This document shows positions 7,012 to 49,887 of a stretch of 64,000 nt of DNA, piece after piece. Below the pieces are notes generated by a model. The model searched no databases. It was given only the letters and a program-made list of their open reading frames with translations, and was not told the DNA's origin. Location: contig NZ_CP013233.1 in the NCBI RefSeq assembly GCF_001584165.1, positions 3,480,620 through 3,544,619 on the forward strand, in the 5' to 3' direction. This stretch comes from Collimonas arenae. Its GTDB lineage: Bacteria; Pseudomonadota; Gammaproteobacteria; Burkholderiales; Burkholderiaceae_D. How positions within the stretch are numbered: the first letter of the stretch is position 1; the number at the start of each line of letters is the position of its first letter. A program made the translations under genes and the position numbers.

Positions 7012-7835
7012 CTAGGCCCGCTGCTCAGGTACGAAAAAGGTCGACAGTTCACGCGCCAGCGCCTCAACTTCTTCCTGCGGCATCGTCTTGATGTCTCGCA
7101 CTGACTGGCCGCTTTCGGTCGCATTGAATGCATCGGCCAATTTGTTGCGCGAATTCGAATCATGGTGCAAATGAATCAGCGGCACGCCGAACGAGTGCCA
7201 GCGCACACCCAGACGCGTCGCACGCCGCAGCAATTCGTCGTCCTCGCCACCCACCCTTCCAGTCGTGCGTTATAGCCACCCACTCGAATGTATTCCTGGC
7301 GCTTGAATAGCACCACACCACCGTTGGCGGTAGCGTATATCTCGTTGGCATCGGCTGGTAATTCCGGCGCTGTGACCGACGCAAAGATGGCCCGATCCGG
7401 GGTTTCCATGAACGCTTGCTTCAACGCTCCTGTCACGTTGATGACATTCCAGTAGGGGCACAACGCATCACTGGCATTCCCGTCAAGCAGTGCATCGACA
7501 CATCCGCGCAAGGTGTCGGGCTGGGCAATCGAATCCGCATCATGAAAACAGATCACGGGACTGCGAGCCAATCGAACACCGGTGTTATAGAGCATCGATT
7601 TGGGAAAAGGCCCGTTGTGATGGATGAATACGTGCCGGATTTTCGGATCGCGCAAGCGATGCCAATCGAAGCTCGGCGCATCCGCCGCCTCCATCAACCA
7701 CAGCCGGTAGTCGGTATAAGTGCGTGCAAGATGCGCCAGCACAGCATACAGATTCTCGCGCCGCTCTTCGGTTGCTTCCCGATACGACACGATGATATCG
7801 ATATCCCTTAATGAAATTGAGCTTGTTTCAGACAT
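7012..7835 (-). CDS. Glycosyltransferase family 2-like protein (frameshifted)
   Basis: The gene reads from 7835 (MSETSSISLRDIDIIVSYR) through a DxD-type metal/nucleotide site (VICFHDADS) to LEGW. It then leaves frame near 7250; the next frame gives GGEDDELLRRATRLG down to 7012. Together they form the EGW-GGEDDEL motif of the galactosyltransferase C-terminal (Glyco_transf_7C) region, giving about 274 residues. One base restored at the GGG run 7250-7252 (minus strand) repairs it. It is convergent with FkbM copy 2 and likely transfers a sugar to a glycan; acceptor unknown. Confidence 0.75.
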
Positions 7836-7960
7836 GATCGATGTTGCGCCTAATGGAATAATGAGAAATGCCCGAAACAGGACTTATACAAAAAGCATCC
7901 TGTATTTTATATGATGACGTGGAGGTGATGAATCATGTTTTCATCCCAAGCACCGCAACG

Positions 7961-8539
7961 TCACCATTTACAGCCAGAGTCGGTGATTGCATCTTTGAGC
8001 AACAATGGAATTGCCAGAAGGCCGAGCTGGGCGTGCTCGGTTCGGCAGTCGCTTCGCCTGGCGCTGGCTACCTTGTCGGAGATTTTTTCACTTTCCGTTA
8101 ATTGCCGATCGGAGCCAGGCAATTGTCTAGGCGCCGTCTCGTGCGCTATCGCGCGTGCTGAGCTCTTCAGCGCATCTAGATTCAATGTGCCTACGGGCGT
8201 CTGCTCCCTACCGCCCTGCTCAATGCCGTTCGACGACTGGCTTCCGGGCGACGCATGACTGATTTCCGGTATCGCACTCTCGTTGCTTTCCCGATTTTCC
8301 TTGCTGCCTCGGTCTCTACGATATGTGTACGCAACGGCGTCGCGCTTGTTTGCTGGCGATTTCTGCGATGTCGCTCGCTGCCGATCGGCCGTCGGCGGCG
8401 CTTGGATCAACATGAGTAATTGTCCTGGCAGCTGCTGTTCAAGGTCGGTTGAAACGGGTCGATCAATGTGGCTCAGAATGCCTGCGATCAAAAGGAAATG
8501 TATCGACGCAACCGCCAACCATGTTGCGTACCTGGGCAT
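7961..8539 (-). CDS. Hypothetical protein with TonB-like N-terminal anchor
   Basis: I do not recognise a characterised family. The 192-residue product has an N-terminal membrane helix (ATWLAVASIHFLLIAGIL, about residues 5-22) followed by QLLMLIQAPP, a layout like TonB-type anchors. A long polar, Ser/Arg/Gln-rich, probably disordered middle follows, then a compact C-terminus (DCRTEHAQLGLLAIPLLLKD ... GCKW) with two cysteines. No TonB C-terminal domain is visible. The ATG at 8539 is preferred to an upstream TTG at 8566; no strong ribosome site was seen. It stands alone. Confidence 0.6.
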   Translation of the reverse strand: MPRYATWLAVASIHFLLIAGILSHIDRPVSTDLEQQLPGQLLMLIQAPPTADRQRATSQKSPANKRDAVAYTYRRDRGSKENRESNESAIPEISHASPGSQSSNGIEQGGREQTPVGTLNLDALKSSARAIAHETAPRQLPGSDRQLTESEKISDKVASARRSDCRTEHAQLGLLAIPLLLKDAITDSGCKW

Positions 8540-8566
8540 CGAAAAATTGGAAGCTGAGTAGCGCAA

Positions 8567-9040
8567 TCGTTTTTTGCCTTCAATAGATGAAAGTGGACCG
8601 CCTGCTGCGCCATCATCGTCATGGCCTGGAGGCTTTTATCCTCAATGCGGTTCAAGCGTCCTGATTTTACCCGGGAATGGGCTAGCCGCACCTATCCGCC
8701 AAACCTTTCCATCCGGAGTAGTGTCGACACCACTCGACGCAGGGAACGAAGGCTTTGAAAGTGGCGCATTCCAAGCCATCTACAGTTTTTCGAATTTTAT
8801 CTCGCACCTCCTTAAAAATATCAAAAAAAATCTTCAAAAAACTCTTTAAAACTCCCAAAAACCAACACAGAAGCCATTTAGCAGATCATCGATAAATTCG
8901 AACATACAAGGGTATTTTTTCCGTTTTTCTTTTACTTTGGCAGAGTGCATACTGCATCCAGTTGATTCAACACGGCATCCATCGCGGCCTTTCCTCCAGT
9001 GGAAAAATGGCGGTGCCTGCAGTAACTGACGGAGAAAATC
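8567..9040. other. Intergenic region upstream of pirin
   Basis: This is 474 bases without a convincing gene. The part at 8800-8870 is strongly A/T-rich with long A runs and would suit a promoter or bent DNA. GGAGAA just before 9041 is the pirin ribosome site. Short open frames here lack ribosome sites and family resemblance. Confidence 0.5.
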
Positions 9041-47766: not shown

Positions 47767-47832
47767 CGTCATTCCCGCGAACACGGGAATCCACGTTGCG
47801 CAAAATGGATCCCCGCGTTCGCGGGGATGACG
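47767..47832. repeat. Dispersed palindromic intergenic repeat, copy 1
   Basis: It begins CGTCATTCCCGCGAACACGG and ends CGCGGGGATGACG; both halves fold as GC hairpins and the ends pair with each other. A second copy lies at 63407-63474. Such repeats occur between genes in many proteobacteria. Confidence 0.85.
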
Positions 47833-47962
47833 CAGGTGGTAGCGTTTTCTGAATCGCCAAATAGGACGTGGAACCAGCACCGCCGCCCGCCCCGCAATTT
47901 AGATTTCAAATGATCGACTTTCTCCGCGAAGCCATGGGTGCATGCCATCGCCGTTCTCGCAA

Positions 47963-48013
47963 ATAAAAAACCCGCCGATGCGTGCTCTGAACAAGGGCAC
48001 ACATCGGCGGGTT
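47963..48013 (-). terminator. Intrinsic terminator of typA
   Basis: On the minus strand AACCCGCCGATG (48013-48002) pairs with CATCGGCGGGTT (47980-47969), followed by TTTTATTTG. It lies 40 bases after the typA stop. Confidence 0.85.
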
Positions 48014-48052
48014 CTTAGTGGACGGGCCCTAGAGCCCGGTTCACTTGACAGC

Positions 48053-49887
48053 TTACGCTTCGCGCGAAGCCTTTTTACGCTCGTGCTCTTTCAGGAAGCG
48101 CTTGCGCAGACGGATGCTCTTCGGTGTGACTTCGACCAGCTCGTCATCGTCGATGAATTCAACCGCGTATTCCAACGACATCTCGATTGGCGGAACCAGG
48201 CGCACCGCTTCGTCGGTACCCGACGAACGAACGTTGGTCAATTGCTTGCCCTTGATCGGATTAACCACCAGATCGTTGTCACGCGAGTGGATACCGATGA
48301 TCATGCCTTCATACACTGGGTCGTTGTGGCTGACGAACATGCGGCCGCGATCCTGCAGTTTCCAGATGGCGTAGGCAACGGCTGCGCCGTCATCTTGCGA
48401 GATCAGCACGCCGTTGCGACGACCGCCCAGTTCACCCTTGGAGGTATCGACCGGTGCGTATTCATCGAACACGTGGCTCATCAGGCCGGTGCCGCGAGTC
48501 AAGGTCATGAATTCGCCCTGGAAGCCGATCAGACCGCGTGCAGGAATACGGTACTCGAGACGCACACGTCCCTTGCCGTCCGGTTCCATGTTTTGCAGAT
48601 CGCCACGACGACGACCCAGTTCTTCCATCACGCCGCCCTGGTTGGTTTCTTCGACGTCGACGGTCAGGTTTTCGTATGGCTCATGACGCACGCCATCGAC
48701 CATCTTGAACACCACGCGCGGACGGGAAACCGCCAACTCATAGCCTTCGCGGCGCATGTTTTCGATCAGGATGGTCAGGTGCAATTCGCCACGGCCCGAC
48801 ACTTCGTAGGTCGAATCGTCGTTTTCAGCTTGTACTACGCGCAACGCCATGTTGGCCTTCAGTTCGCGGTCCAGACGGTCCTTGATCTGACGGGTGGTCA
48901 CGAACTTGCCTTCGCGGCCAGCCAGCGGCGAGTTGTTCACCATGAAGTTCATGGTCAGGGTCGGCTCGTCAACCTTCAGCATCGGCAGGCCTTCCGGATG
49001 GTCCGGTGCGCAGATGGTGGAACCGATACTGATTTCTTCAATTCCGTTGATCAGCACGATGTCGCCAGCCAGTGCTTCGTCAACCAGCACGCGATCCAGG
49101 CCACGGAAAGTCAGCACCTGGTTGATACGCGCCTTGGTTGGCTTGTCTTCCGGACCATTCATCCAGACTACGTCTTGCAGGGCTTTGACTTTACCGCGCA
49201 GGATACGGCCAACGCCGATCTTGCCGACGTAGGAAGAGTACTCCAGCGAAGTGATTTGCAGTTGCAGCGGGCCGTTAGGATCATCTTCACGCGCTGGAAC
49301 GTGTTCCAGGATAGCGTCGAACAATGGTTCCATGTTGCCTTCGCGGACGGTGTCTTCCAGACCTGCATAGCCTTTGAAGCCCGATGCGTAGATGATCGGG
49401 AAATCCAGTTGTTCGTCGGTTGCGCCGAGTTTGTCGAACAGTTCGAAAGTCGCGTTCACAGCCTTTTGCGGGTCTGCGTTTTCGCGGTCGATCTTGTTCA
49501 CAACAACGATCGGCTTCAAGCCCAGCGCCAGCGCTTTACGCGTGACGAAACGCGTTTGCGGCATCGGGCCTTCTTGCGCATCGACCAGCAGCAGAACACT
49601 GTCAACCATCGACAGTACGCGTTCCACTTCGCCACCGAAGTCGGCGTGGCCGGGGTATCAACGATGTTGATGTGCGTGCCCTTGTATTCGACTGCGCAGT
49701 TCTTCGACAGAATCGTGATGCCACGTTCTTTTTCAATTTCGTTCGAATCCATCACGCGTGCATCGACGTGCTGGTTGTCACGGAAGGTGCCCGATTGACG
49801 CAGCAATTGGTCAACCAGAGTGGTCTTGCCGTGGTCAACGTGGGCAATGATGGCAATGTTGCGGATGGCGCGAGGTGTGTTTGACAT
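48053..49887 (-). CDS. typA: TypA/BipA, ribosome-associated translational GTPase (frameshifted)
   Basis: About 611 residues. The first frame (MSNTPRAIRNIAIIAHVDHG from 49887) carries the P-loop AHVDHGKTTLVD and switch I GITILSKNC. After NIVDTP it breaks near 49650, where one base in the CC run (plus strand) is missing; with it the text reads DTPGHADFGGEVERVLSMVD, the G3 motif. The rest is intact: VVNKIDR, EF-G-like domains and the TypA C-terminal domain. TypA aids 50S assembly and growth at low temperature. A broken typA is unlikely in nature, so I read this as a sequence error. Confidence 0.92.

What the first reader, a model, noticed from the sequence alone, without database searches (positions are those of the whole stretch)
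7012..49887. A dozen frame breaks, all single-base losses in short homopolymers
Breaks at about 7250 (glycosyltransferase), 9467 (pirin), 11209 (DedA-rhodanese), 12630 (XapX, probable), 22258 and 21914 (ndh), 31466 (FAH), 41783, 41622, 41203 and 41070 (transporter), 49650 (typA) are each mended by adding one base, most in a run of 2-4 identical bases. None needs a base removed. Natural decay would mix insertions, deletions and stops, and would not hit typA and ndh while leaving all residues conserved on both sides. The likely cause is base-calling deletions, so gene calls and any 'pseudogene' label here are unsafe.
Basis: partly seen in the sequence, partly recalled or inferred. Interest (0 to 1): 0.7.

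Follow-up and report, generated by a model that had tools for sequence, protein, structure and literature searches.

The report
Sequencing-error frame breaks in Collimonas genome
The broken genes in this stretch of a soil bacterium's genome are almost certainly not broken in the living cell: single bases were probably lost when the genome was read or assembled, so 'pseudogene' labels there should not be trusted.

Summary
All twelve frame breaks are in the deposited sequence; each is a one-base loss against intact relatives and none needs a base removed. The organism is a Collimonas, a soil bacterium. 'In short homopolymers' holds only in part: 8 of 14 placeable losses are in runs of two or more (44.8% expected), 7 of 14 in runs of three or more (10.6% expected). 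Deletion bias alone decides nothing: all 7 strict breaks in relatives are deletions too. Four breaks cluster in one transporter, unexplained. No reads were available.

The parts
7012..7835 (-). glycosyltransferase (galactosyltransferase-like), one frame break at about 7251
   Evidence: tblastn of 10 intact relatives: one frame down to 7251, the rest in the next frame, 10 of 10; relatives and Pfam domains; no DNA match in 14 other Collimonas genomes
9041..9741 (+). pirin family protein, one frame break at about 9463-9466
   Evidence: 2 of 2 relatives; P0064 (233 aa, contig of 4,709,377 bp) matches 1-142 and 142-233 at 100% in two frames
10742..11664 (-).
   Evidence: 2 of 2 relatives; its relative has no NCBIfam hit at E<=1e-30
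   Evidence: stop present in 4 of 4 aligned loci, one-base gap clean in 2 of them; Pfam PF07235 does not match G000
   Evidence: 3 of 3 and 4 of 4 relatives; the first fragment matches oxidoreductase and hydroxylase families only weakly and the last has no NCBIfam hit; the only stop in the segments lies upstream of the ATG
30789..31483 (-). fumarylacetoacetate hydrolase family protein, frame break about ten codons after the ATG (31457-31472)
   Evidence: 4 of 4 relatives read through; its relative L121 matches two FAH families below their cut-offs
40786..42179 (-). MFS transporter (D-galactonate/glucarate type), four frame breaks at about 41781, 41623, 41192, 41070
   Evidence: 12 of 12 relatives for each break; TIGR00893 above cut-off for relative L175
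39194..40735 (-). galactarate dehydratase, intact, directly downstream of the broken transporter
   Evidence: TIGR03248, 927.7 bits, residues 112-624 of the ORF 39194-41068
48053..49929 (-). typA/bipA GTPase, one frame break at about 49651-49654
   Evidence: TIGR01394 above cut-off for the downstream piece; 5 of 5 relatives

Best explanation
The breaks are residual single-base deletion errors of a long-read assembly, with no biological function. Noisy single-molecule reads under-call bases, somewhat more often in runs of three or more. At modest depth the consensus step leaves some losses uncorrected across the chromosome. Genes hit by one appear split, while the cell carries intact genes. Shown: the breaks, their sign, their recurrence outside the window, the conserved flanks, the intact relatives. 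Inferred: the strain (C. arenae Ter10), the read technology as cause, and local low depth as the reason for the cluster in the transporter.
For: 12 of 12 sites with intact relatives and one base missing. Outside the window: 15 strict breaks in 149 genes and 142.6 kb, 14 deletions and 1 insertion, against G003 2 in 195.7 kb, G012 4 in 196.1 kb, G005 1 in 24.6 kb, G008 0 in 43.0 kb, G006 0 in 39.7 kb. Broken genes outside the window include the only secY (split at about model position 60) and the only rpoC (frame changes after residue 1373 of 1411). dN/dS of six correctly framed broken window genes is 0.054-0.101, against a median of 0.062 in 27 unbroken genes, whose range is 0.009-1.72. No stop inside the pieces of seven genes checked; the single one seen lies upstream of the ndh start. 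One protein from a contig of 4,709,377 bp is identical over all 233 residues to the window's pirin read in two frames. Published method: one SMRT cell per strain, HGAP3, Quiver; Illumina reads assembled with Ray. My arithmetic on Table 1 (CDS number x mean length / coding fraction, with rounding) gives 4.713-4.725 Mb for Ter10 and 4.703-4.714 Mb for Ter282; this genome has 4,723,987 bp. The same arithmetic fits 4 of 4 contigs of named Collimonas species (5,186,898 Ter331; 5,599,729 Ter6; 5,730,025 Ter91; 5,585,899 Ter291; strain names are my assignment). Ter10 has coding 78.4% and mean CDS 834 nt, Ter282 85.4% and 899 nt. A deeper HGAP3/Quiver assembly of another bacterium needed 205 indel corrections, nearly all in G or C homopolymers.
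Against: No reads were seen. The strain identity rests on arithmetic, not on a record. The paper calls its approach a combined Illumina and PacBio strategy; section 25 names no short-read correction, but the supplements were not seen. Homopolymer excess is only partial: 8 of 14 placed sites in runs of at least 2, not significant. Deletion bias is not specific: 7 of 7 strict breaks in relatives are deletions. Four breaks in the 1.39-kb transporter exceed the sample rate (expected 0.14, P 1.3e-5 for one gene chosen after the fact), and so do twelve in about 50 kb (expected 4.9, P 0.005; the twelve were counted more loosely than the rate), so the errors are unevenly spread or some are real. The looser count outside the window has 2 insertion-type among 23 breaks.
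Confidence: 0.95

Rival explanations
1. Most of the breaks are true recent frameshift mutations (pseudogenes in the making), for instance in the sugar-acid transporter with four breaks.
For: The transporter cluster is denser than the sample rate; strict deletion-type breaks also occur at a low rate in relatives (2 in 195.7 kb, 4 in 196.1 kb, 1 in 24.6 kb).
Against: The transporter pieces have dN 0.043 and dS 0.623 against L175, w 0.069, like intact genes. No stop inside the pieces. The galactarate dehydratase next to it is intact. typA, ndh, secY and rpoC are hit as well.
Confidence: 0.03
2. A mutator strain (mismatch-repair defect) with real one-base deletions in short runs across the genome.
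For: One-base losses with an excess in runs of three or more. The state of mutS and mutL was not checked.
Against: A mutator would be expected to give insertions too (recalled), but strict counts are 14 deletions and 1 insertion in the sample. A break at about residue 78 of the only secY should be lethal (established knowledge).
Confidence: 0.01
3. Programmed ribosomal frameshifting or another recoding restores the proteins.
For: Frames on both sides stay conserved.
Against: The relatives tested have these genes in one frame. No common sequence is apparent in the contexts printed (looked at, not tested), and four sites fall in one gene.
Confidence: 0.005

Closest known systems
Residual indel errors in long-read-only bacterial assemblies
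   Same: Small indels causing frameshifts across the genome: hundreds per long-read-only assembly, mostly in homopolymers (PMC8812927, passages); 205 residual indels after HGAP3 and Quiver, nearly all in G or C homopolymers (PMC4832174, passages).
   Different: Here about half of the placeable losses lie in runs of three or more (7 of 14), nearly all are losses, and there is a local cluster of four in one gene.
Natural pseudogenes
   Same: Frames split so that gene callers report fragments.
   Different: No sign of relaxed selection, no internal stops in seven genes checked, single-copy core genes hit.

Membership tests
Residual long-read assembly deletion errors | Breaks recur over the genome, not only in the window | tested here: met
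   15 strict breaks in 142.6 kb of comparable genes; 20 stretches fetched, about 7 of them with almost no reference
Residual long-read assembly deletion errors | Essential single-copy genes are hit as well | tested here: met
   only secY and only rpoC, near its C terminus; lepB is also hit but the genome has a second signal peptidase I match
Residual long-read assembly deletion errors | Near relatives lack the breaks | tested here: met
   all relatives whose ORF spans each of the 12 sites, except that the FAH scan counted 0 of 1 further relative before the direct alignment gave 4 of 4; P0064 identical and intact
Residual long-read assembly deletion errors | Losses concentrate in homopolymers | tested here: inconclusive
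   7 of 14 placed sites in runs of at least 3 (10.6% expected), but 8 of 14 in runs of at least 2 (44.8% expected, p 0.25); 9 of 23 not placeable
Residual long-read assembly deletion errors | Raw or short reads lack the loss | not testable with these tools
   no reads available
Residual long-read assembly deletion errors | Assembly made from long reads without short-read correction | tested here: inconclusive
   section 25 names HGAP3 and Quiver and no short-read correction for the Ter strains, section 5 calls it a combined strategy; that this genome is Ter10 is inferred from size
Natural pseudogenes | Relaxed selection on the broken gene | tested here: not met
   w 0.054-0.101 in six correctly framed broken genes against a median of 0.062 in 27 unbroken genes; glycosyltransferase and XapX-like pair not measured
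Natural pseudogenes | Mixture of insertions, deletions and stops | tested here: not met
   0 insertions among the 12; no internal stops in seven genes checked, of FAH only the downstream piece
Programmed frameshifting | Shift site conserved in relatives | tested here: not met
   relatives tested are in one frame

The most novel reading that the evidence does not exclude
A minority of the breaks, most plausibly the four in the sugar-acid transporter, are real and very recent, so that this strain has lost a galactarate or glucarate uptake route while the rest are read errors.
Probability: 0.04. Interest if true: 0.2.

Novelty: not a real feature. Interest (0 to 1): 0.1.

Why it matters
It is a warning about one reference genome rather than a biological finding. 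Gene counts, coding density, pseudogene labels and presence or absence calls taken from this assembly are unreliable; a rough extrapolation of the strict sample rate (14 in 142.6 kb) suggests some hundreds of breaks. If the genome is Ter10, the low coding fraction in Table 1 of the genus comparison is probably in part an artefact.

Tried and rejected
First scans chose some antisense or off-frame ORFs as references, which hid the DedA-rhodanese and transporter genes and gave spurious breaks with odd shifts. They were replaced by a scan that asks for a coding-like third-position G+C pattern. One deletion row (41074, from L185) is an off-frame duplicate of the 41070 site and was dropped before the homopolymer counts. 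The window 'insertion' row (49949, shift +13) lies upstream of typA and was not counted. In the sample, the strict insertion (L135 10604) lies, as I read it, in an ORF opposite a ribosomal-protein region; it was kept in the counts.

Interpolated positions for reference blocks in G003 mostly missed: 13 of 20 own stretches had under 2 kb covered. Three blocks (6 stretches) were then mapped by search and fetched; 7 of 20 stretches (at 20-40 kb, 0.9, 2.1 and 3.2 Mb) stayed almost or wholly without a reference and add almost nothing to the counts.

The last protein search, for the transporter (best 120 listed), showed no hit on the 4,709,377-bp contig; P0184 to P0194 all show the window's four breaks, and none matches the window at 100%. 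The DUF1427 search did not match the XapX-like pair in G000. A search for papers holding Ter10, Collimonas and frameshift returned 0; of the papers, PMC4690342 was seen as passages and sections 5 and 25, PMC4832174 and PMC8812927 as passages, the others only as listings.
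Full report
What the window is. The window lies in a single-contig genome of 4,723,987 bp. Its nearest relatives are Collimonas species, Oxalobacteraceae, mostly soil bacteria, with 88-92% DNA identity over typA in 14 other genomes of the genus. G+C of the window averages about 57%.

Check of the observation. Intact ORFs from syntenic blocks of five relatives, from the transporter loci and from other homologues were compared with the window by tblastn, and the frame and offset of successive matches were recorded. 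Counting relatives whose ORF spans the site, support is 10 of 10 proteins for the glycosyltransferase (10 of the 63 found were aligned), 2 of 2 for pirin and 2 of 2 for the DedA-rhodanese gene, 3 of 3 and 4 of 4 for the two ndh breaks, 12 of 12 for each of the four transporter breaks and 5 of 5 for typA, and 4 of 4 for FAH. For FAH the automatic scan found support in 0 of 1 further relative; the direct alignment settles it. For the XapX-like pair the upstream ORF keeps its stop in 4 of 4 aligned loci, while the one-base gap is clean in 2 and blurred by other gaps in 2; only the last residues are affected.

What the genes are. The 'transporter' is an MFS protein of the D-galactonate/glucarate type (TIGR00893 above cut-off for its relative) directly upstream of an intact galactarate dehydratase. 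typA is above its NCBIfam cut-off; the FAH relative matches its families below cut-off.

Test outside the window. Twenty stretches of 20 kb from the same genome were compared with blocks of two relatives; 7 of the 20 stayed nearly without a reference. With a strict filter (shift exactly one base, flanks of at least 25 residues at 70% identity or more) there are 15 breaks in 149 genes and 142.6 kb, 14 deletions and 1 insertion, or 1.05 per 10 kb; in the window, against the five syntenic relatives alone, 5 in 38.8 kb, all deletions. The same filter gives 2 in 195.7 kb for G003, 4 in 196.1 kb for G012, and, in the window's block only, 1 in 24.6 kb for G005, 0 in 43.0 kb for G008 and 0 in 39.7 kb for G006; all 7 are deletions, so the sign alone does not mark this genome, the rate does. 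The looser counts are 23 breaks in the sample (21 deletions, 2 insertions), 9 for G003 (5 and 4) and 13 for G012 (10 and 3).

Essential genes. The sample breaks include secY, of which the genome has one copy, split near model position 60, and rpoC, also a single copy, where the frame changes after residue 1373 of 1411. A cell with the secY break should not live (established knowledge). Other broken genes have relatives named lepA, lepB, malate dehydrogenase, ureG and dsbD, and an Lrp-like regulator below its cut-off; lepB is not decisive because a second signal peptidase I match is present.

Selection and decay. dN/dS of six correctly framed broken window genes is 0.054 to 0.101, against a median of 0.062 for 27 unbroken genes (range 0.009 to 1.72, the top value probably a spurious ORF); a seventh row, an off-frame fusion with the galactarate dehydratase, gave 0.126. 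Broken genes are no more divergent than unbroken ones (median identity 89.8% in 4 against 90.5% in 37 genes of the window, 93.3% in 14 against 90.2% in 135 of the sample). The pieces of seven genes hold no internal stop; the one seen lies upstream of the ndh ATG.

A sister sequence. A protein of 233 residues recorded on a contig of 4,709,377 bp is identical to the window's pirin, residues 1-142 in one frame and 142-233 in the next. The tool shows no source for it. This is one gene only; the search for the transporter listed no protein from that contig.

Source of the assembly. PMC4690342 (passages and sections 5 and 25) describes C. arenae Ter10 and Ter282, both 4.7 Mb and 56.8% G+C, each from one PacBio RS II SMRT cell assembled with HGAP3 and Quiver, the Illumina reads being assembled with Ray. 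It calls this a combined strategy; section 25 names no short-read correction, and the supplements were not seen. From Table 1, gene number times mean length divided by coding fraction gives 4.713-4.725 Mb for Ter10 and 4.703-4.714 Mb for Ter282 (my arithmetic). The window's genome fits Ter10 and the 4,709,377-bp contig fits Ter282. As a check, the same arithmetic fits 4 of 4 contigs of named species (C. fungivorans 5,186,898 and 5,599,729 bp; C. pratensis 5,730,025 and 5,585,899 bp) to Ter331, Ter6, Ter91 and Ter291. Ter10 has a coding fraction of 78.4% and mean CDS length of 834 nt, Ter282 85.4% and 899 nt; section 5 does not comment on it. That long-read-only assemblies keep hundreds of mostly homopolymer indels is stated in PMC8812927 (passages), and PMC4832174 reports 205 corrections after HGAP3 and Quiver (passages).

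Homopolymers and clustering. Because relatives differ near many sites, only 14 of 23 strict deletions could be placed: 7 lie in runs of three or more (10.6% of coding bases do, p 2.6e-4), 8 in runs of two or more (44.8% expected, p 0.25) and 6 at single bases. A stricter placement rule left 7 of 23, 4 in runs of three or more; two sites got different runs under the two rules. So there is an excess in longer runs, but 'all in short homopolymers' is not shown. The breaks are also uneven: four in the 1.39-kb transporter against 0.14 expected (one gene chosen after the fact). Local low read depth is my guess.

Verdict. As biology the breaks are very probably not real.

Noticed in passing
L136:4466-5769, L135:3461-7689 (own genome, outside the window): The only secY and the only rpoC of this genome are frame-broken in the assembly.
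   Followed up: yes
L202, L204, L205 (G012): G012, whose contig length is that of a C. fungivorans record and fits Ter6 of the same PacBio study, has 4 strict deletion-type breaks and no insertion in 196.1 kb; a milder form of the same artefact is possible.
   Followed up: partly
window 12459-12804: Tandem pair of very small hydrophobic ORFs, the stop of the first next to the start of the second, found at 4 aligned loci in the family; Pfam DUF1427 does not match it in this genome.
   Followed up: partly
window 7012-7835: The glycosyltransferase has no DNA match in 14 other Collimonas genomes; its nearest homologues are unnamed records and Variovorax, which suggests horizontal transfer.
   Followed up: no
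window 36400-46300: No syntenic match over 1 kb in the blocks of five relatives; the transporter part lies elsewhere in them. G+C drops to 0.506 at 36-40 kb and Rfam has no match at 36000-39300.
   Followed up: no
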